Shown in pieces: positions 9,540 through 42,423 of a stretch of 64,000 bases of DNA; position 1 is the first letter of the stretch; every line of letters begins with the position of its first letter. The position numbers and the translations under genes were made by a program. This DNA is from Kutzneria kofuensis (GTDB lineage: Bacteria; Actinomycetota; Actinomycetes; Mycobacteriales; Pseudonocardiaceae), in the NCBI RefSeq assembly GCF_014203355.1, contig NZ_JACHIR010000002.1, positions 186,001-250,000 on the forward strand, written 5' to 3'. The notes beneath the pieces were generated by a model. The model was not told the origin of the DNA, did no database searches, and worked only from the letters and a program-made list of their open reading frames with translations.

Positions 9540-10328
9540 TCAGGTGCGATTGCGACCGACATGGACGTTGCGGGCGCGGAAGTAGGTCGGGGCCGTCGGG
9601 CCCGGCGAGCCGGCCGCGCCCTCCATCTGCAGGTCGATGATCAGCCACATCGGCCGGTCGACGAAGTTCGCGCCGCGGTGCGCGGCGACCCAGGTCCCGT
9701 CGAGGTAGTAGTGGATGTCCACGTCCGTCGGACCGGCCTTGGTGATCCGGGCCCGGTATCCGTGCCAGCCGCCGGGGTTCCGCACGTCGACGAGGGTGGT
9801 GGCGGTGCGGCCGGAGGCGTCGCGGTACGTGGTGAACCGGTTCCTGGTGTCACCCCGGAACTCCAGGATGTCGCTCTCCGGCGGCCGGCTCGCGATGCCG
9901 CTGAGCCAGCACGCCGGCCACGCGCCCATCGTCGCCGGCGCCCGGAACTCGCCCCTGATCTCCCAGTCGGGAAACCGGTCGCTGACCAGGATCGGCTGCT
10001 TGGTGTGGATCGCGCCGGAGCGGTAGTGGATCGCGCTGTACGGCCGGTGCAAACTGGTGCGCTCGGTCGACGGGGTGCGGGTGGCCTTCAGCGCCAGCAC
10101 GCCGTCCGGCTCCAGGAACACGTGCTCGCGGTCGGCGACGGTGCTCGTCCGTGCGGCGCCGTTGTGGTCCGATCCCCAGGGATAGCCGTAGTTCCACGCC
10201 GCTTCGAGGCTCTGGTACCCGGCGAACGTGCCGTCCAGCACGGTCTCCCACACCGGCGGGGGCTTCGCCGCTCCGCCGGCCATGCGCGCGACGGCGGCGG
10301 TCAGCGGTCTTCTGCGGGCATGGATCAT
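9540..10328 (-). CDS. GH16-like glycoside hydrolase
   Basis: Beta-jelly-roll endo-glycanase of the GH16 type (262 residues). PESDILEFRGD carries the E-x-D-x-x-E catalytic signature of the family. WPACWLSG before it and the C-terminal WLIIDLQMEG also fit the laminarinase-like fold. GH16 includes beta-1,3-glucanases, beta-1,3-galactanases and agarases; the GH35/GH27/GH51 neighbours favour a galactan or arabinogalactan backbone enzyme, but this is inference. The N-terminus (MIHARRRPLTAAVARMAGGAAK) is only weakly signal-like, so secretion is uncertain. It starts at ATG 10328 after GGAGGTGGGGG. It is the first gene of a GH16-GH35 operon with a promoter at 10436-10465 and an operator at 10407-10420. 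Confidence 0.8.
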   Translation of the reverse strand: MIHARRRPLTAAVARMAGGAAKPPPVWETVLDGTFAGYQSLEAAWNYGYPWGSDHNGAARTSTVADREHVFLEPDGVLALKATRTPSTERTSLHRPYSAIHYRSGAIHTKQPILVSDRFPDWEIRGEFRAPATMGAWPACWLSGIASRPPESDILEFRGDTRNRFTTYRDASGRTATTLVDVRNPGGWHGYRARITKAGPTDVDIHYYLDGTWVAAHRGANFVDRPMWLIIDLQMEGAAGSPGPTAPTYFRARNVHVGRNRT

Positions 10329-10406: not shown

Positions 10407-10420
10407 TGTTATCGCTAACA
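10407..10420. promoter_or_regulatory. LacI-type operator, 13/14 match (GH16-GH35 operon)
   Basis: TGTTATCGCTAACA differs at one position from the perfect TGTTAGCGCTAACA found elsewhere in the window. It sits about 16 bases downstream of the -10 box of the minus-strand GH16 promoter, where a bound repressor would block early transcription. Confidence 0.75.
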
Positions 10421-10684: not shown

Positions 10685-10698
10685 TGTTAGCGCTAACA
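10685..10698. promoter_or_regulatory. LacI-type operator, perfect palindrome (GH27)
   Basis: TGTTAGCGCTAACA, a perfect 14-bp palindrome with the central CpG typical of LacI-family sites. It lies in the 5' leader, roughly +35 from the predicted start and 46 bases before the GH27 start codon. Confidence 0.85.
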
Positions 10699-10744: not shown

Positions 10745-11989
10745 ATGGGGCAGGGAACGCGCCGATGGAGTCGCGTGGTGGGGGCGACGGTGCTGGCGGC
10801 GGTAAGCCTGGTGGCGCCGGCATGGGGCGGGCCGGCATCGGCCGGACCGAGCGCGCCGGCGGAAGCGCCGCCGATGGGATGGGCGTCGTGGAACAGCTTC
10901 GCGGCTCAGATCAACTACGGCGTGATCAAGGCTCAGGCCGACGCGATGGTGTCGAGCGGCATGCGGGACGCCGGATACCGCTACGTCAACATCGACGAGG
11001 GCTGGTGGCAGGGAACCCGGGACGCGGCCGGCAACATCACGGTCGACGCGAAGGACTGGCCGGGCGGCATGAAGGCGATCGCCGACTACATCCACGGCAA
11101 GGGCCTGAAGGCCGGCATCTACACCGACGCCGGCAAGAACGGGTGCGGCTACTACTACCCCACCGGACGTCCCGCCGCCCCCGGCTCGGGCAGCGAGGGC
11201 CACTACGACCAGGACTTCCTGCAGTTCTCCCGCTGGGGCTTCGACTTCGTCAAGGTGGACTGGTGCGGCGGCGACGTCGAGGGGCTCAACGCCCGCAACG
11301 CCTATCAGGCGATCAGCGACGCGATCGGCCGCGCCACCGCGAAAACGGGACGGCCGCTGACACTGTCCATCTGCGACTGGGGCAAGCAGGACCCGTGGAA
11401 CTGGGCGCCGGGCATGTCGACGATGTGGCGCACCAGCCAGGACATCATCTACTGGGGTCAGAGCCCGTCCATGGACCGCGTCCTGGGCAACTTCGACGCG
11501 GCGCAGCACCCGACCGCCCAGAGCGCGGGCCACTACAACGACCCGGACATGCTGGTCGTCGGCATGCCGGGCTTCACCCCGGCCCAGAACCGGTCGCACC
11601 TGAGCCTGTGGGCGGTCTCCGGCGCGCCGTTGCTGGCCGGCAACAACCTGGCCACGATGACGGCCGACACGAAAGCGGCGCTGACCAACCGTGAGGTCAT
11701 CGCGATCGACCAGGATTCGCTGGGACGGCAGGGAACCAGGGTGGCCGAAGACCAGCCGGGCCGGCAGGTCTACAGCAAGGTCCTCACCGGCAACCGGCGC
11801 GCGGTCGTCGCGCTCAACCGCACGGACGCGGCCGCGACGATCACCGTGCGCGTCGCCGACCTGGGCCTGAGCGGCCGGGTTTCGGTGCGGGACATCTGGA
11901 AGGCGGCCGACCTCGGCGCCAAGACCACGAGCTTCACGGTGACCGTCCCGGCGCACGACTCCGTGCTGCTGACGGTGACTCCGGCATGA
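10745..11989 (+). CDS. Secreted GH27 alpha-galactosidase / beta-L-arabinopyranosidase
   Basis: GH27 retaining glycosidase (414 residues). After a Sec signal peptide ending near GPASAGPSAPA, the mature enzyme begins PPMGWASWNSF, the family hallmark. The nucleophile is Asp172 in KVDWCGG and the acid/base is Asp268 in YNDPDML. A C-terminal all-beta domain closes the protein. In Streptomyces, GH27 includes both alpha-galactosidases and beta-L-arabinopyranosidases; the arabinose-directed neighbours make either possible. ATG 10745 follows AAGGAG. It lies 40 bases upstream of the GH127-like gene, so the two are likely one operon behind the operator at 10685. Confidence 0.92.
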   Translation: MGQGTRRWSRVVGATVLAAVSLVAPAWGGPASAGPSAPAEAPPMGWASWNSFAAQINYGVIKAQADAMVSSGMRDAGYRYVNIDEGWWQGTRDAAGNITVDAKDWPGGMKAIADYIHGKGLKAGIYTDAGKNGCGYYYPTGRPAAPGSGSEGHYDQDFLQFSRWGFDFVKVDWCGGDVEGLNARNAYQAISDAIGRATAKTGRPLTLSICDWGKQDPWNWAPGMSTMWRTSQDIIYWGQSPSMDRVLGNFDAAQHPTAQSAGHYNDPDMLVVGMPGFTPAQNRSHLSLWAVSGAPLLAGNNLATMTADTKAALTNREVIAIDQDSLGRQGTRVAEDQPGRQVYSKVLTGNRRAVVALNRTDAAATITVRVADLGLSGRVSVRDIWKAADLGAKTTSFTVTVPAHDSVLLTVTPA

Positions 11990-14603: not shown

Positions 14604-14644
14604 CCTCCGCGGTAACGGGTCCGCAACAAAGCGTGCCGCCGCCG

Positions 14645-14673
14645 TTGTCGAGCCCGCACGCCGCGCATACGGT
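14645..14673 (+). promoter_or_regulatory. Putative GH51 promoter
   Basis: TTGTCG at 14645-14650, a 17-base spacer, TACGGT at 14668-14673. The predicted start is near 14680, giving a leader of about 70 bases before GTG 14749. Confidence 0.5.
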
Positions 14674-14748
14674 CTGCCGACAAGGCGCGTGTCGGCGGTC
14701 ACAGGCCGTCGTAAACAACCGATCCTCCGCCATCTCGGGAGTACCACT

Positions 14749-17568
14749 GTGCAGAGACCACGGCTGACCGCCACGCTGTTAGCGCTAACACTGCTGGGGG
14801 CCGGCCTGACCGCCGCCGGCGCGTGGTCCGCGTCGGCGGCCGACGGGTCCGGCCCGACGCTGACCGCCGACGTGAGCCGCACGACGACAAACGTGAACAA
14901 GACCCAGTTCGGCGACATCGTCGAGGACATCAACCACTCCGTCGAGGGCGGCCTCGGCGCGAACATGGTGCGCAACAGCACCATGAAGGAGAACGGCACC
15001 TCGTCCTGGTCGGCCGTCACGGCCGGCGGCGGCGCCGGCACGATCGCCCTGGACACCACCCAGCCGCTGAACTCCGCCAACGGCAACTCCCTGAAGCTGA
15101 GCATCACCTCCAACGCCCGCGGCCAGCGCGTCGGCGTGGCCAACAGCGGCTTCTACGGCATCGGCCTGGCGCCGTCCACCAAGTACACCGCCACCTTCTT
15201 CGCCAAGACCGACGGCACCTTCCGCGGCGGGCTGACCGTCGACCTGGAGAGCACCACCGGCACGGTGTACGCCAAGGCGACCGTCCACTCGGTCAACTCC
15301 AAGTGGACGAAGTACAGCGTCACCATGACCACCGCCGCGAACACGCCGGTGTCCACCGCGAACCGCTTCGTCATCGCCGCCGACGGGGTCGGCGCGGGCT
15401 CCGCGCTGTACTTCGACGTCGTCACCTGCCAGCCGCCGACGTACCACAACAGCGGCCTGCGCAAGGACCTGATGGACAAGCTGGCCGCCACCAAGCCCGG
15501 CTTCTTCCGCGTCCCCGGCGGCAACTACCTCGAGGGCAACACGCTGTCGACGCACTTCGACTGGAAGACCACGATCGGCCCGATCGAGAATCGCCCCGGC
15601 CACCAGAACGACGCCTGGGGCTATTGGTCCACCGACCAGGCGGGACTCAAGGCGTACCTGGACATGGCCGAGCAGACCGGGGCGCAGCCGCTGCTGGCGG
15701 TCTTCGCCGGCTACACGCTCAACCACACCGTGGTTCCCCAGGACCAGCTGGCGCCGTACGTGCAGGACGCGCTGGACGAGATCCAGTACGCCATCGGCGG
15801 TCCGTACACCAAGTGGGGCGCCAAGCGCGCCGCCGACGGCCACCCCGCGCCCTACGACGTGCGCTACGTGGAGATCGGCAACGAGGACTGGTTCGACGGC
15901 ACCGGCAGCTACAACAACTACCGCTTCCCCATGTTCCACGACGCCATCAAGGCCGCCTACCCGCAGCTGCAGCTGGTGGCCTCGGCGGCGGTGAACAGCC
16001 GGCCGGTCGACGTGATCGACGACCACTACTACAGCGGTGACACGTCGTACTTCACCAACGCGGCGCACACCTACGACGGCGCTTCCCGCAACGGCCCCAA
16101 GCACCTGGTCGGCGAGTACGCCACCACCAACGGCACCAAGGACAACCCGACCGGGACGCTGGCCGGCGCGGTCAGCGAGGCCGCGTTCATGACCGGCATG
16201 GTCCGCAACGCCGACGTCGTGGTGGGCGCCTCCTACGCGCCCGCGCTGTCGTCCGTCGACGACTTCCAGTGGCCCACCAACGAGATCGCGTTCGACGCCG
16301 CCACGTCGTTCGGCTCACCGTCGTACTGGGTGCAGCACATCTTCGGCACCAACACCGGCGACTACGTCGTCTCGTCGTCGCTGGCCGGGGCGGACGCGGC
16401 GGTGAACTCGGTGGTGACCCGGACCGCGTCCGGCACGGTGTACGTGACGGTCGCCAACCCGACCAACTCCCCCGTCACCACGCAGATCCGGCTCAACGGC
16501 GCCACTTCTGTCCGTCCCAATGGGACGGCGACCGTGCTGACCGGCGACCCGAACGCCCGCAACTCCATCGCCGCGCCCAACACCATCGCGCCGACGACGT
16601 CCACCTTCACGGCGTCGAACTCCTTCGCCTACACCTTCCCGGCGAACTCGGTGGTGGCGCTGAAGCTGAACGCCCCCGCGCCGCTCACCCCGGTGCTGAA
16701 CGTCAACACCGGTCTGTCGCTGCACGTGACCACGCCCGGCGCCACCGATCGGTCCGTCGCGGTCTCCAACGGCGTCGGCACGACCACCGTGGTCACGGCC
16801 TCGTCGTCGGACGCCGACAAGCTGGGCGCCAGCTTCCTGCCGCGGCCGGGCCTGGCCGACCCGTCCTGCTACTCCCTGGAGTCGCGGGCGAATCCGGGCC
16901 AGTACCTGAGCCACCAGGGCGACCGGATCACGCTGGGCACGGACAAGCGGTCCGCCACCTTCTGCGCGGCCGTCGGGAACGGCACGGGCGTGGCGTTCCA
17001 GGCGTACGACGATCGGGATCGGTACCTCGCCTACCATGACGGCGGCCTCAGGCTGGACAACCGCCGCGACAGCTTCACCATCGGCGAGCCGTGGTGGCGC
17101 AGCGACGTCTCGGTGCCGCTGGGCCGCGCCTCGTGGCAGGCCGACACCGGCGACTTCCTGCGGCACCAGAACTACGTCGCGAAGACCTCGCCGATCACCT
17201 CCGGCAGCCCCGCCACCGATCTCCAGGACGCCACCTTCACCCTGGTGCCGGGCCTCTCGGACCACTCCTGCTACTCGTTCGAGGCCGTCAACTTCCCTGG
17301 CTACTACCTGCGGCACTACAACTTCCAGGTGGTGCTGAACAAGAGTGACGGTTCCGCCCTCTTCTCCGACGACGCCACGTTCTGCGCCATGACCGGCCAC
17401 AACGGCCAGGGCATCTCCTGGCAGGCGTACGCCTACGAGGACCACTACCTGCGGCAGTTCCAGGGCAACGTCTACATCGGCGCCGATGGCGGCCCCCGCA
17501 CCGGGGACGCGGCGACCGGGTGGGCGGACGACACCAGTTGGCTTCGGGCGGCTCCCTGGGCCGCCTGA
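14749..17568 (+). CDS. Secreted GH51 alpha-L-arabinofuranosidase with CBM42 (AbfB) domain
   Basis: Secreted exo-acting arabinofuranosidase of 939 residues. The Sec signal runs from GTG 14749 (GGGAG seven bases upstream) to about ASAAD. A CBM4/9-like segment covers residues 40-220, then the GH51 barrel with acid/base Glu379 in EIGNEDWF and nucleophile Glu456 in VGEYATTN. The C-terminal AbfB domain (CBM42, about residues 695-939) shows the repeated arabinose-binding pattern SCYSLES..GQYLSHQ, SCYSFEA..GYYLRH and DHYLRQ. It removes alpha-L-arabinofuranose from arabinan, arabinogalactan or arabinoxylan. An operator palindrome is built into the signal-peptide codons (14777-14790), giving a TTA codon at residue 11. 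Convergent with the EEP gene across a strong terminator. Confidence 0.93.
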   Translation: MQRPRLTATLLALTLLGAGLTAAGAWSASAADGSGPTLTADVSRTTTNVNKTQFGDIVEDINHSVEGGLGANMVRNSTMKENGTSSWSAVTAGGGAGTIALDTTQPLNSANGNSLKLSITSNARGQRVGVANSGFYGIGLAPSTKYTATFFAKTDGTFRGGLTVDLESTTGTVYAKATVHSVNSKWTKYSVTMTTAANTPVSTANRFVIAADGVGAGSALYFDVVTCQPPTYHNSGLRKDLMDKLAATKPGFFRVPGGNYLEGNTLSTHFDWKTTIGPIENRPGHQNDAWGYWSTDQAGLKAYLDMAEQTGAQPLLAVFAGYTLNHTVVPQDQLAPYVQDALDEIQYAIGGPYTKWGAKRAADGHPAPYDVRYVEIGNEDWFDGTGSYNNYRFPMFHDAIKAAYPQLQLVASAAVNSRPVDVIDDHYYSGDTSYFTNAAHTYDGASRNGPKHLVGEYATTNGTKDNPTGTLAGAVSEAAFMTGMVRNADVVVGASYAPALSSVDDFQWPTNEIAFDAATSFGSPSYWVQHIFGTNTGDYVVSSSLAGADAAVNSVVTRTASGTVYVTVANPTNSPVTTQIRLNGATSVRPNGTATVLTGDPNARNSIAAPNTIAPTTSTFTASNSFAYTFPANSVVALKLNAPAPLTPVLNVNTGLSLHVTTPGATDRSVAVSNGVGTTTVVTASSSDADKLGASFLPRPGLADPSCYSLESRANPGQYLSHQGDRITLGTDKRSATFCAAVGNGTGVAFQAYDDRDRYLAYHDGGLRLDNRRDSFTIGEPWWRSDVSVPLGRASWQADTGDFLRHQNYVAKTSPITSGSPATDLQDATFTLVPGLSDHSCYSFEAVNFPGYYLRHYNFQVVLNKSDGSALFSDDATFCAMTGHNGQGISWQAYAYEDHYLRQFQGNVYIGADGGPRTGDAATGWADDTSWLRAAPWAA
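14777..14790. promoter_or_regulatory. LacI-type operator inside GH51 signal-peptide codons
   Basis: Perfect TGTTAGCGCTAACA. In the GH51 frame it reads (C)TG-TTA-GCG-CTA-ACA, so it encodes Leu-Leu-Ala-Leu-Thr in the hydrophobic core. It lies about 100 bases downstream of the predicted transcription start, a roadblock position. Confidence 0.85.
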
Positions 17569-20803: not shown

Positions 20804-20817
20804 TGTTAGCGCTCACA
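20804..20817. promoter_or_regulatory. LacI-type operator, 13/14 match (PAP2-EEP operon)
   Basis: TGTTAGCGCTCACA, one mismatch from the shared palindrome. It lies in the leader, roughly +14 to +27 from the predicted start and just upstream of the Shine-Dalgarno sequence. Confidence 0.75.
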
Positions 20818-38417: not shown

Positions 38418-39701
38418 TCAGCTCCCGCTCGCGAGCGACTCGGTGATCGCGGCGTTGTGCTCGTGCAGCGCCGAGGCCGGGTCGCCGGCCCCGAACACGG
38501 CGTCGATCACGGTCTGCGTCCAGGGGCCGTTGGTGTCGTTGTAGGTCTTGCCGAAGTTGACCGAGATCGGGGTCTGGCCCTGCTCGGCGAGCTTGTTGAA
38601 CACGCCCAGGCGCGGATCCTGCTGGGCGTAGGTGTTGCCGGCGAGGTCGGAACGGACGGTGATGTTCTTGTTCTTCGCCACCACGTCCACCTGGGCCTTG
38701 TCCGACAGCGTCCAGGCGATGAAGTCCCACGCCGCCGCGGCGTGCTGGCTGTTGGCGCCGATGCCGACGACGTCACCGCCGACGAAGGAGGAGCTGCCGC
38801 CGGTCAGGCCGGGAATCGGGGCGACGCCGACCTGGAGGTCGGGGCCCTCCTTCATGCCCTGCAAGGCGGTGGCGCCCATCGGCTGGATGCCGATCTTGCC
38901 GTCGATGAACGACTGCGTCCACGTCGGACCGGACTCGTCCTTGGCCGACGCCGGCACCAGTCCGTCGGCGTGCATCTGGCGCAGCAGGGAGTACACCTTG
39001 GCCGCGACGGGATTGTCGATGGTGGACGCGGTGCCCTGGTCGTTGAGCACGGTGCCGCCGGACGCCCAGATCATCGGCCAGCTGGTGAACAGCTGGCAGC
39101 CGGGGCAGGCGCCGCCGAAGAAGTAGCCGTTGACGCCGCCGCCGAGCGCGTTGATCTTCTTCGCGTCGGCCGCCATCTCGTCCAGGGTGGTCGGCGGCTT
39201 GGCGGGATCGAGGCCGGCGCGGGTGAACAGGACCTTGTTGTAGAACATCGCGGACAGGTCGATGTCGTGCGGGACGGCGAAGTCCTTGCCGTCGTGGGCG
39301 GCGGCCTTCATGTGCGCGGGGGCCAGGGATGCCTTGAACGGCAGCTGGTTCACCCGCTCGGTGATGTCCATGAACACGCCGTTGGCGGCGTAGTTCGGCG
39401 CGTACACCACGTCGGAGGCCAGCACGTCCGGCAGCTGCTTCGCGCCGGCGGCCGTGCCGACCTTCTGCTGGTAGGAGTCGGCCGGGAAGACCGTCAGCTT
39501 CACCTTGTTCTTGTGGCTCGCGTTGTACGCGTCCACCAGCGTCTGGCTGAAGGTGGCCGTCGGCGACCGCGTCCACATGGTGATCGTCGTGCCGTCGTCC
39601 ACCGAACCGGTGCCACCGCCCGACGACGGTGGACCGCCCTGACACGCTGTTAGCGCTAACACCGCGGCCATGACGACCGCCGCACGGACACGCGCGATCA
39701 T
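38418..39701 (-). CDS. ABC sugar transporter solute-binding lipoprotein
   Basis: Extracellular sugar-binding lipoprotein of about 427 residues (family-1 SBP). The signal MIARVRAAVVMAAVLALTACQGG has a lipobox LTAC; the mature part begins with a Gly/Ser linker and TTITMWTRSPTATFSQTLVDAYNASH. ATG 39701 follows GAGGAG. The DNA for VLALT in the signal contains a perfect operator palindrome (39648-39661) and thus a TTA codon. It is the first gene of a probable operon (SBP, two permeases, GH127, GH39-like, ricin-domain protein, GH127-like) of about 11.7 kb. Confidence 0.94.
   Translation of the reverse strand: MIARVRAAVVMAAVLALTACQGGPPSSGGGTGSVDDGTTITMWTRSPTATFSQTLVDAYNASHKNKVKLTVFPADSYQQKVGTAAGAKQLPDVLASDVVYAPNYAANGVFMDITERVNQLPFKASLAPAHMKAAAHDGKDFAVPHDIDLSAMFYNKVLFTRAGLDPAKPPTTLDEMAADAKKINALGGGVNGYFFGGACPGCQLFTSWPMIWASGGTVLNDQGTASTIDNPVAAKVYSLLRQMHADGLVPASAKDESGPTWTQSFIDGKIGIQPMGATALQGMKEGPDLQVGVAPIPGLTGGSSSFVGGDVVGIGANSQHAAAAWDFIAWTLSDKAQVDVVAKNKNITVRSDLAGNTYAQQDPRLGVFNKLAEQGQTPISVNFGKTYNDTNGPWTQTVIDAVFGAGDPASALHEHNAAITESLASGS
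39648..39661. promoter_or_regulatory. LacI-type operator inside lipoprotein signal-peptide codons
   Basis: Perfect TGTTAGCGCTAACA. On the minus strand it is read as (G)TG-TTA-GCG-CTA-ACA, Val-Leu-Ala-Leu-Thr, right before the lipobox Ala-Cys. It lies about 100 bases downstream of the predicted transcription start. Confidence 0.85.
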
Positions 39702-39866: not shown

Positions 39867-40955
39867 ATGTCCTCCCGGAAACTTTCCGCAACCGATGGCC
39901 GCGGTCGCCCGACCACCATCGCCGACGTCGCCCAGCTCGCGGGCGTGTCGACGGGGACGGTGTCCAAGGCGCTCAACGGCCGCGGCACGCTGCGCGCCGA
40001 GACCCGCAGCCGCGTGCTCGCCGCGGCCGAGCAGCTGGGTTTCCACCCGAACCGGGCGGCCGTCACGCTGAACTCCGGCCGGACCTACACGGTCGGCATG
40101 ATCACCACCGACACCATCGGCCGGTTCAGCATCCCGCTGCTGATGGGCGTCGAGGACACCCTGGGCGCCGGCGAGATGTCGGTGTTCCTGTGCGACGCGC
40201 GCGACGACCGCATCCGGGAGCAGTACTACCTGCGCACGCTGCTCAGCCGCCGGGTGGACGGCATCATCGTCACCGGCCGGCGCAGCCACGCCCGCCCGCC
40301 GATCGGCGCCGACCTGCCGATCCCCGTGGTCTATGCGTTCACCAGCTCCACGGATCCCGAGGACGTGTCGGTTGTGCCCGACGAGGCCGGCGGCGCGCGC
40401 AAGGCCGTCGAGCACCTGCTGACCATCGGTCGCCGCCGGATCGCCCACGTCACCGGGCCCGAGCACCACCACTCGGCGGTGGTGCGCGCGTCCGCGACCG
40501 TGGCGGGGCTCGCCGCGGCCGGGCTGGACCTGGTCGTCCCGCCCCTGTTCGGCGAATGGAGCGAGGCCTGGGGCCGGCACGCGGCGAAGATTCTGCTCGG
40601 CTCCGGCAAGGAGTTCGACGCCGTGTTCTGCGGCAGCGACCAGATCGCCCGCGGCGTCGCCGACGCGCTCCGCGCGTCGGGCCGGCGCGTGCCGGACGAC
40701 GTCGCCCTCGTCGGCTTCGACAACTGGGACGTCATGGCACTCGCCTGCCAGCCGCCGCTGACCAGCGTGGACATGGAGCTGCAGCAGCTCGGTCGCACCG
40801 CGGCCGAGCTGCTGTTGGCCGCGATCAACGGTGAGACCCCGCCGCGCCGGCACGTCCACCCGTGCCGCCTGGTGGTTCGCGACTCGACCGCGGCGCCGAT
40901 GCTGCCGTCTTCGCCAATCGCGGCGAACGCCGAGGGCAGCCTCGACGTGACATGA
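39867..40955 (+). CDS. LacI-family regulator 1
   Basis: Sugar-responsive repressor of 362 residues. The N-terminal helix-turn-helix is TTIADVAQLAGVSTGTVSKALNGRGTLRAETRSRVLAAAEQLGFHPN, followed by a periplasmic-binding-like sensor domain (YTVGMITTD, FSIPLLMGVEDTL, VALVGFDNWDVMALACQPPLTSVDMELQQLG). It is divergent from the ABC/GH127 operon and probably controls it through the AACCGGTT repeat in the shared region. Whether it also binds the TGTTAGCGCTAACA sites is not clear from the sequence. ATG 39867 is chosen from the domain start; its RBS is weak. Confidence 0.92.
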   Translation: MSSRKLSATDGRGRPTTIADVAQLAGVSTGTVSKALNGRGTLRAETRSRVLAAAEQLGFHPNRAAVTLNSGRTYTVGMITTDTIGRFSIPLLMGVEDTLGAGEMSVFLCDARDDRIREQYYLRTLLSRRVDGIIVTGRRSHARPPIGADLPIPVVYAFTSSTDPEDVSVVPDEAGGARKAVEHLLTIGRRRIAHVTGPEHHHSAVVRASATVAGLAAAGLDLVVPPLFGEWSEAWGRHAAKILLGSGKEFDAVFCGSDQIARGVADALRASGRRVPDDVALVGFDNWDVMALACQPPLTSVDMELQQLGRTAAELLLAAINGETPPRRHVHPCRLVVRDSTAAPMLPSSPIAANAEGSLDVT

Positions 40956-41035: not shown

Positions 41036-41057
41036 ATTGTGTTAGCGCTAACACAAT
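41036..41057. promoter_or_regulatory. LacI-type operator, 22-bp perfect palindrome
   Basis: The perfect TGTTAGCGCTAACA core (41040-41053) is extended by ATTG/CAAT to a 22-bp perfect palindrome, the longest copy in the window. It overlaps a possible -10 (TATTGT, 41035-41040) and precedes the decayed secreted-protein gene at 41200. Confidence 0.88.
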
Positions 41058-41442: not shown

Positions 41443-42387
41443 TCAGTCCCTGACGGTCAGCGCCGGGACGAGCAGCTCGACCCCGAACCGCTGGGCGCCT
41501 TCGATGCGGGCGACCAGGAGTTCGACGGCGCGCCGGCCCAGGTCCTCGGCCGGCACGTGCACCGACGACACCCTGGGCTCGGTCCGCCGCGCCACTTCGT
41601 CCGGGCATATCGCGACCATGTCGACCGGCGAGGGCGCACCGGCCAGCACGGCCGGCAGCGCGGCCTCGTTGTGCACGACCAGCCCGGTGATCTCGGGCCG
41701 CTCGGCCAGCAGCTCGGCCGCGGCCCGGCCGTCGGCCTCGCACGCCCGCACGACGGCGTTCACCCCTCGGCGCGCGGCCGCCGCACTGAAGCCGGCCACG
41801 CCGCGCTCGGCGTAGCCGGTGCGCCGCTCGTAGACCGCGCGGGGCGCGCCGAGCAGCGCGATGTCCCGATGCCCCCGGTCGGCCAGGTGGTCGACACACA
41901 TCCCGTACGCGGCCGAGAAGTCCAGGTCGACGCAGGTCAGGCCGCTCGGGTCCGTCGGCACGCCGATCAGCACGGACGGCACCGGGCACCGCCGCAGCGC
42001 CGGCAGGCGCGGGTCGTCCATCTCGACGTCCATCACGACCAGGCCGGCCACCGGCGATTCCACGGTGCGCAGCACACCCTGCGGCCCCTCGTCGCCGGTG
42101 ACCAGCAGGACGTCCCGGCCGCCCCGGCGGGCGCTGTCGACCATGGCCCGCACGAACCGCATCACGACCGCCACATTGATGCCCTCGCGCAGCGGCAACA
42201 CCACTCCGACGGCGCCGACGGCGGAAGGCGGCAGTATTCCGCCGCGTGGGCGATAGCCGAGCGACCGAATGCTGTCCCAGACGCGGTGCGCGGTTTCGCT
42301 CGATATCGCCCGCTTGCCGGTGAGCACGTACGACACCGTGCTGGGAGCCACTCCGGCGTGGTGGGCGACATCGGCGATGGTGACCAC
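41443..42387 (-). CDS. LacI-family regulator 2
   Basis: Repressor of 314 residues, slightly short. The helix-turn-helix is VTIADVAHHAGVAPSTVSYVLTGKRAISSETAHRVWDSIRSLGYRP, with GTG 42387 placing it at the very N-terminus; the sensor domain follows (AVGVVLPLREGINVAVVMRFVRAMVDSARRGGRDVLLVTGDEG). It is divergent from the pectate lyases and probably controls them and the second ABC transporter, perhaps through the CACATCCGGATGTG palindrome at 42534. A predicted -10 only a few bases before the GTG suggests a leaderless message. Confidence 0.9.
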   Translation of the reverse strand: MVTIADVAHHAGVAPSTVSYVLTGKRAISSETAHRVWDSIRSLGYRPRGGILPPSAVGAVGVVLPLREGINVAVVMRFVRAMVDSARRGGRDVLLVTGDEGPQGVLRTVESPVAGLVVMDVEMDDPRLPALRRCPVPSVLIGVPTDPSGLTCVDLDFSAAYGMCVDHLADRGHRDIALLGAPRAVYERRTGYAERGVAGFSAAAARRGVNAVVRACEADGRAAAELLAERPEITGLVVHNEAALPAVLAGAPSPVDMVAICPDEVARRTEPRVSSVHVPAEDLGRRAVELLVARIEGAQRFGVELLVPALTVRD

Positions 42388-42393
42388 CGACCC

Positions 42394-42423
42394 ACGTTAC
42401 GCGAGCGCAGTTGACGGCGACAA
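42394..42423 (-). promoter_or_regulatory. Putative promoter of LacI gene 2 (near-leaderless)
   Basis: Minus strand: TTGTCG (complement of 42418-42423), 18-base spacer, TAACGT (complement of 42394-42399), six bases before the GTG start, so the transcript may begin at the start codon. Confidence 0.4.

What the first reader, a model, noticed from the sequence alone, without database searches (positions are those of the whole stretch)
14777..14790. Operator embedded in the GH51 signal-peptide codons
The palindrome is read in frame as CTG-TTA-GCG-CTA-ACA, giving Leu-Leu-Ala-Leu-Thr in the hydrophobic core. TTA and CTA are very rare in such genomes, so the codons appear to be set by the DNA-binding site: one stretch serves both secretion and repression. 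The TTA may also make translation depend on the bldA-type tRNA.
Basis: partly seen in the sequence, partly recalled or inferred. Interest (0 to 1): 0.85.

Follow-up and report, generated by a model that had tools for sequence, protein, structure and literature searches.

The report
Repressor binding site inside signal-peptide codons
In a soil actinomycete, the codons for the export signal of an arabinose-releasing enzyme appear to double as the DNA landing site of an arabinose-type repressor, and the same trick recurs in other genes of the same system and in distant relatives.

Summary
TGTTAGCGCTAACA lies at 14777-14790, read CTG-TTA-GCG-CTA-ACA, codons 10-14 of a secreted GH51 arabinofuranosidase (Kutzneria). 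It is one of 17 sites (at most 1 mismatch) in the genome; the reversed pattern has 0. All four intact Kutzneria orthologues found keep TGTTRGCGCTAACA within an otherwise diverged signal peptide; one residue changes (L/V/M/M) but its TG stays. Dactylosporangium siamense (another order, 54% identity) has the exact site at the same place; three Catellatospora orthologues lack it and have operator-like sites (2-3 mismatches) behind the promoter. The likely regulator is an AraR-type LacI repressor, with its own operator upstream in 6 of 6 Kutzneria copies. The GH51 site lies about +102 to +110 from a conserved promoter, so I infer an elongation roadblock; three relatives have a second operator near -139. 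It is not isolated: a lipoprotein in the window has the site in its signal peptide, and in 29 of 45 araB genes (sample enriched for the operator) it overlaps the start or first codons, in two reading frames. A published survey puts under 1% of LacI-family sites in coding regions. bldA dependence is not supported as the reason for the TTA. Binding and repression are untested.

The parts
14777..14790 (.). operator TGTTAGCGCTAACA inside codons 10-14 of the GH51 signal peptide
14749..17568 (+). secreted GH51 alpha-L-arabinofuranosidase (ASD1_dom, Alpha-L-AF_C, AbfB), GTG start; signal peptide inferred by reading, no predictor run
   Evidence: Pfam; start conserved in 4 Kutzneria
14645..14673 (+). 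conserved sigma70-type promoter TTGTCG-17-TACGGT; inferred transcription start about 14681
   Evidence: present in 4 orthologues; transcription start not measured
14610..14627 (+). CGGTAACGG invariant block and GTAAC-n6-GCAAC element upstream of the promoter (looks like a GlnR box; label recalled)
   Evidence: alignment only
14693..14703 (+). CGGCGGTCACA, invariant block just behind the inferred transcription start; unknown, perhaps a second regulator site
39648..39661 (.). second operator inside a signal peptide: codons for VLALT running into the lipobox of the sugar-binding lipoprotein
38418..39701 (-). ABC-transporter sugar-binding lipoprotein (SBP_bac_1), MIARVRAAVVMAAVLALTAC
   Evidence: Pfam
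39867..40955 (+). LacI-family regulator next to the lipoprotein gene (other recognition helix than the AraR candidate)
   Evidence: Pfam
41443..42396 (-). a further LacI-family regulator
   Evidence: Pfam
10685..10698 (.). exact operator upstream of the Melibiase-type (GH27-like) gene 10745-11989
10407..10420 (.). operator with one mismatch, upstream of gene 9540-10328(-)
20804..20817 (.). operator with one mismatch, near the uncertain start of gene 18945-20675/20897(-)
41040..41053 (.). exact operator with no gene start called near it; flanks match the region upstream of an arabinofuranosidase-like gene of genome G005

Best explanation
The palindrome is an operator of an AraR-type LacI-family repressor of the arabinose/arabinan regulon, placed inside the first codons of the GH51 gene. 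In the frame used, its 14 bases read xLALT, which fits the hydrophobic core of a signal peptide. SHOWN: a DNA-level constraint on these codons and membership in a genome-wide operator set. INFERRED: without arabinose the repressor sits about 105 bp behind the transcription start and stops elongating RNA polymerase; arabinose or a derivative releases it. In three intact relatives (and a relic) a second operator upstream of the promoter could add initiation control or a loop. In this genome that upstream copy is absent; the next exact site is about 4 kb upstream.
For: 17 sites in the genome against 0 reversed controls. Four-way identity: 13/15 nt in the operator codons, 13/27 in the signal-peptide codons before and 12/36 after. 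Of 653 same-residue codon columns of GH51, A/T-ending codons of G000 are kept in all four in 3 of 19, two of the three being the operator's CTA and ACA; G/C-ending ones in 410 of 634. Codons CTG/GTG/ATG/ATG keep the TG. Exact site at the same place in Dactylosporangium, another order. Promoter conserved; operator centre at +102.5, +107.5, +110.5, +110.5. AraR-type LacI gene divergent to GH51 in G001 and G002; a one-mismatch site lies 102-128 bp before the codons of its DNA-binding helix in 6 of 6 Kutzneria copies. Two of 7 genus genomes (G003, G004) have neither the tested sites nor a close AraR nor this GH51. Operators lie near araA/kinase/transporter genes and arabinofuranosidase, GH62, GH43 and Melibiase-type genes. 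Second case in the lipoprotein signal peptide, operator 14/14 identical in three Kutzneria, +107 here. araB: 29 of 45 genes overlapped; 400 permuted palindromes gave mean 0.015, maximum 2.
Against: No binding, expression or transcription-start data. At least three further LacI-type genes lie near operators in this genome (L006 11122-12108, window 39867-40955, window 41443-42396), so the cognate one is inferred; 14 of 30 fetched loci of AraR homologues have no site with at most one mismatch. An invariant block at 14693-14703 may be another regulator site that does the main work. Kutzneria orthologues share ancestry and are not independent events. In G002 and G005 an ATG inside the operator could be an alternative start. 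Of the 11 exact own-genome sites only 3 are in codons. A promoter-distal site can also work by looping.
Confidence: 0.77

Rival explanations
1. The site works by DNA looping or at initiation together with the upstream operator, not as a roadblock.
For: Three intact relatives have an operator at -138.5 to -139.5 and the in-gene site at +107.5 to +110.5, centres 246-250 bp apart although the sequence between them is gapped in the alignment; relic 245 bp, at -127.5 and +117.5.
Against: This genome lacks the upstream site. The AraR candidate ends 3 residues after the LacI core (query 19-342 of 345 aligns to LacI 4-329 of 360), so it has no LacI tetramer tail (role of the tail recalled).
Confidence: 0.25
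2. The palindrome is a by-product of a conserved peptide LALT; no DNA function.
For: LALT is the same in the four intact Kutzneria and the Dactylosporangium signal peptides.
Against: Rare codons CTA and ACA are kept; Catellatospora signal peptides do without LALT; in araB the same DNA is read in two frames, as LALT or as VSAN/NVSAN, in 12 of 29 with the start codon inside it.
Confidence: 0.03
3. Another LacI paralogue or another regulator, not the araB-linked AraR, binds here.
For: Other LacI genes lie near operators; the lipoprotein has a separate AACCGGTTTCCGGTT-type box behind its -10.
Against: Only the AraR-type gene has a close site upstream in 6 of 6 Kutzneria copies; araB lies within 10 kb of it in 5 of these 6; 16 of 30 fetched loci of its homologues have a site with at most one mismatch (no control run). 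Upstream sites of the other LacI genes were not compared in the same way.
Confidence: 0.15
4. TTA at codon 11 makes translation depend on a bldA-type tRNA, and that is why it is kept.
For: TTA is rare.
Against: TTG in two of four intact Kutzneria orthologues; the same TTA is found in araB of five Kutzneria.
Confidence: 0.04
5. The palindrome acts as an RNA hairpin in the mRNA.
For: It forms a 5-bp stem with a GCGC loop in one of three predicted folds.
Against: z-scores -0.38, +0.87 and -1.62; copies of the motif lie upstream of promoters.
Confidence: 0.03

Closest known systems
PurR site in purB and LacI site in lacZ (E. coli), the in-gene LacI-family operators named in Ravcheev et al. 2014, PMC4052901 (two passages seen)
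   Same: a LacI-family operator inside the coding region of the gene it controls
   Different: here the site is in signal-peptide or first codons, its reading frame fits the peptide, and it recurs over several genes and genera; [quoted passage not shown]
C.Kpn2I roadblock, PMC6237814 (passages seen, with the abstract's statement)
   Same: regulator bound inside a reading frame stops elongating polymerase (shown there by experiment)
   Different: other protein family, autoregulation, no secretion signal
AraR of Corynebacterium glutamicum ATCC 31831, LacI-type arabinose repressor (Kuge 2014; seen only as a table row and reference in PMC13056197; the paper itself not held)
   Same: LacI-type regulator of L-arabinose genes
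   Different: its operator sequence and protein sequence were not compared here
CcpA cre sites and galOI (recalled, no call)
   Same: operators within genes, central CG palindromes
   Different: recalled only

Membership tests
LacI-family operator | even palindrome with a central CG pair | tested here: met
   TGTTAGC|GCTAACA
LacI-family operator | LacI-family gene beside the sites | tested here: met
[quoted passage not shown]
   site is 28-41 nt behind the first base of the start codon; a usual, not a required, feature
LacI-family operator | bound by the regulator and released by a sugar | not testable with these tools
   needs protein and DNA in the laboratory
AraR-type arabinose regulon | regulator linked to araA and the ribulokinase gene | tested here: met
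   L006 order: araA, aldolase-like (not scanned), FGGY kinase, transporter, LacI; Pfam AraA and FGGY hits
AraR-type arabinose regulon | responds to L-arabinose | not testable with these tools
   no ligand data
AraR-type arabinose regulon | same operator as C. glutamicum AraR | not tested
   paper not held
in-gene elongation roadblock | site inside the gene, well behind the promoter | tested here: met
   +102 to +110 from the inferred transcription start
in-gene elongation roadblock | bound protein stops RNA polymerase | not testable with these tools
   needs in vitro transcription
bldA-type TTA control | TTA kept at the site in orthologues | tested here: not met
   TTG in G001 and G005
bldA-type TTA control | growth-phase-limited Leu-UAA tRNA | not tested
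   tRNA genes were not searched

The most novel reading that the evidence does not exclude
In the AraR regulon of several actinomycete families, operators are often written into the first codons of target genes, so the repressor's DNA preference dictates N-terminal peptides: xLALT in signal peptides and lipoboxes, VSAN-type leaders or the start codon itself in the ribulokinase. Such genes would be controlled by stopping polymerase just inside the gene, with the reading frame chosen to suit the protein.
Probability: 0.5. Interest if true: 0.75.

Novelty: new variant of a known kind. Interest (0 to 1): 0.64.

Why it matters
In-gene operators of the LacI family are held to be rare exceptions. Here one regulon appears to use them often, and one 14-bp DNA word is fitted to two reading frames according to what the peptide must do. 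That is a clean case of one sequence under two codes, and it makes a testable prediction: N-terminal residues and rare codons can be explained by a DNA-binding protein. Promoter-only scans for regulator sites would miss such operators, and codon optimisation of these enzymes would silently remove their control.

Tried and rejected
Literature: no paper of the held library contains TGTTAGCGCTAACA; TTAGCGCTAA gave 11 papers, none about this regulon by title (titles and abstract starts only). Searches for in-gene operators with signal peptides (7 listed), LacI regulons with AraR (3 listed), operators within coding or over start codons (15 of 24 listed) and dual-use codons (10 of 22 listed) showed no description of this arrangement in the rows listed; apart from PMC4052901 and PMC6237814 I saw listings only. 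The passages of PMC13056197 and PMC5956887 gave no AraR operator sequence.

RNA hairpin: folds of three stretches were not unusual. bldA reading: rejected as the cause of conservation. Peptide-only reading: rejected.

One search printed 47 open readings for 135 sites (variants allowed). Most were judged to be accidental upstream extensions, by eye from ribosome sites and downstream N-termini; I count only the GH51, lipoprotein, araB, ThuA (L204) and three start-codon-overlap cases. This curation is mine and not blind. One search lists only the first places: sites of 10 of its 45 positive genomes (G105, G160, G170, G188, G284, G292, G340, G390, G397, G437) were not listed and not fetched as sites. 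A few exact or near sites deep in genes (L135, L137, L125, L124, L159) were not followed.

Limits of the araB count: the 49 genomes were the 44 non-own operator-positive genomes plus 5 Kutzneria (own included), so the sample is chosen for having the operator; 45 of 49 had the gene. Start codons were chosen by a simple ribosome-site score, and several genomes share a genus. Of 45 araB genes, 29 have a site (at most 2 mismatches: 5 exact, 10 with one, 14 with two) overlapping the gene, 4 have one only upstream (G061, G075, G231, G326), 12 have neither within the searched stretch.

The Catellatospora sites and promoters were found with a looser search (up to 4 mismatches with CG in the middle; last promoter base T, A or G) than the Kutzneria ones.

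Full report
WHAT IS THERE. The window lies in a 10.4-Mb genome. TGTTAGCGCTAACA stands at 14777-14790, 28 nt behind the first base of GTG 14749, the start of a 939-aa protein with ASD1, arabinofuranosidase C-terminal and AbfB domains. The genome has 11 exact and 6 one-mismatch copies and none of the reversed control pattern. In a sample of 393 genomes of the class, 45 (own included) have an exact copy.

IS IT SELECTED AS DNA? One search found close relatives of the protein in 4 of 7 genus genomes. The four intact Kutzneria genes (G000, G001, G002, G005; behind the signal peptide 2015 of 2676 nt identical in all four) read TGTTAGCGCTAACA, TGTTGGCGCTAACA, TGTTAGCGCTAACA, TGTTGGCGCTAACA. Four-way identity is 13 of 15 nt in the five operator codons, 13 of 27 in the ungapped columns before and 12 of 36 after. 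The residue at the first operator codon changes (L, V, M, M) while its TG does not. Of 653 codon columns with the same residue in all four, those ending in A/T in G000 are identical in 3 of 19, those ending in G/C in 410 of 634; two of the three are CTA and ACA of the operator, the third a CGT far away. By codon use in the window, TTA GCG CTA ACA is expected for LALT with probability about 5e-7. Dactylosporangium siamense (Micromonosporales; 54% identity) has the exact palindrome in its signal peptide, MVKFRMPV[VLALT]MM. Three Catellatospora orthologues (57-58%) have ordinary codons there; each has an operator-like site (2, 3 and 3 mismatches) beginning 43 nt behind the first base of a TTGAC-17-TA promoter, that is at about +13 (looser search than for Kutzneria). 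Of the 80 loci, only L038, L039, L040 and L042 have a site with at most 2 mismatches within 2 kb upstream of, or at, the start of the match.

A RELIC. In G006 no intact GH51 of this type was found, but beside the AraR gene there remains GTG VRRPRFITR[LLALT]LLVG-stop with TGTTAGCGCTAACC, 245 bp from the upstream operator.

ARCHITECTURE. A promoter TTG-n20-TANNGT (17-bp spacer) is present in all four. With a start 7 nt behind the -10 box (assumed), the in-gene operator centre is at +102.5 in this genome and +107.5, +110.5, +110.5 in the others. The three relatives also have TGTTAGCGATAACA at -138.5, -138.5 and -139.5. This genome has no such copy; its GH51 stands behind a gene that I take for a GH127 (recalled, not scanned). 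In G005 both operators are kept although no AraR gene was called in the fetched locus. Of the 17 own-genome sites, 5 have a promoter that my pattern recognises within 160 bp: three intergenic ones at +14, +16 and +39, and the two in signal peptides at +102 and +107.

REGULATOR. The best candidate is a 345-aa LacI-family protein (L006 8745-9782) in a cluster with araA, an aldolase-like gene, an FGGY kinase gene and a sugar transporter. Its 86-88% orthologues stand divergent to GH51 in G001 and G002 and to the relic in G006. In 6 of 6 Kutzneria copies (two in G005) a one-mismatch site lies 102-128 bp before the DNA-binding helix codons; araB lies within 10 kb in 5 of these 6. G003 and G004 have no site of the pattern searched, no close AraR and no such GH51. 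Of 30 fetched loci of AraR homologues, 16 hold a site with at most one mismatch and 14 do not. The protein ends just after the LacI core, so a LacI-like tetramer is unlikely. At least three further LacI-type genes stand near operators, so this assignment is an inference.

NOT AN ISOLATED CASE. (1) The sugar-binding lipoprotein 38418-39701 carries the exact site in its signal peptide, MIARVRAAVVMAA[VLALT]AC, identical in three Kutzneria (G000, G005, G006) while flanking codons vary. Of the three more distant relatives found in 25 genomes, G170 (52%) has TGTTAACGCTCACA at the matching place; G332 and G235 have nothing. (2) araB: of 45 genes found in 49 genomes chosen for having the operator, 29 have a site (at most 2 mismatches) overlapping the gene: 12 with the GTG start codon inside the operator and 12 further inside, both in the VSAN frame, and 5 (all Kutzneria) in the xLALT frame. 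Four have only an upstream site and 12 none. 400 permuted palindromes gave a mean of 0.015 genes and at most 2. (3) A ThuA-domain protein with a signal-like N-terminus in G143, MRRVHRF[LLALT]ATLALL, and sugar-binding lipoproteins in G075, G235 and G244 whose likely start codon RTG is part of the operator. The secreted cases that I count all use the hydrophobic frame. Of the 11 exact sites in the own genome, 3 are in codons (GH51, lipoprotein, araB) and 8 are not in a confidently called gene.

MECHANISM. Shown: constraint on DNA, membership in an operator set, position behind a conserved promoter-like sequence. Inferred: AraR binds, stops polymerase about 105 bp out and lets go on arabinose. 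Looping or initiation control with the upstream operator is the main rival in the relatives.

COMPARISON. Ravcheev et al. [quoted passage not shown] C.Kpn2I (PMC6237814, passages seen) shows experimentally that a protein bound inside a reading frame can block elongation. So the kind is known; its repeated use over a regulon, in signal peptides and in two frames, was not seen in the searches made.

Noticed in passing
window 39648-39661: A second exact operator is written into a lipoprotein signal peptide and runs into the lipobox codons; conserved in three Kutzneria genomes.
   Followed up: yes
araB of 45 genomes (L251-L289, L162, L170, L174, L186, L191, L231): The operator overlaps the araB start codon or first codons in 29 of 45 genes, in two frames.
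   Followed up: partly
L216 2815-2871 (G006): A GH51 relic: start codon, signal peptide and operator remain beside AraR, the gene body is gone.
   Followed up: partly
window 41040-41053: Orphan exact operator between two convergent LacI genes; flanks match the region upstream of an arabinofuranosidase-like gene in G005.
   Followed up: partly
window 14693-14703: CGGCGGTCACA just behind the inferred transcription start is invariant in four Kutzneria GH51 genes; no function assigned.
   Followed up: no
window 14610-14627: GTAAC-n6-GCAAC, like a GlnR box (recalled), conserved upstream of the GH51 promoter.
   Followed up: no
upstream of window 39701 (-): AACCGGTTTCCGGTT-type palindrome behind the -10 box of the lipoprotein gene, conserved in three Kutzneria; probably the site of another LacI-type regulator.
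   Followed up: no
L135 2547-2560 (G005): Exact operator deep in a gene, read NVSAN; unexplained.
   Followed up: no
L005 4114-4128: GTG followed by ATAGCGCTAACA at a called gene start: another possible start-codon overlap with a one-mismatch operator in the own genome.
   Followed up: no
Streptomyces loci such as L047 3166, L058 1862, L060 3572, L065 3444: Operator-like sites (1-2 mismatches) recur about 2.4-3 kb upstream of the matched part of the GH51 homologue, before some other gene.
   Followed up: no
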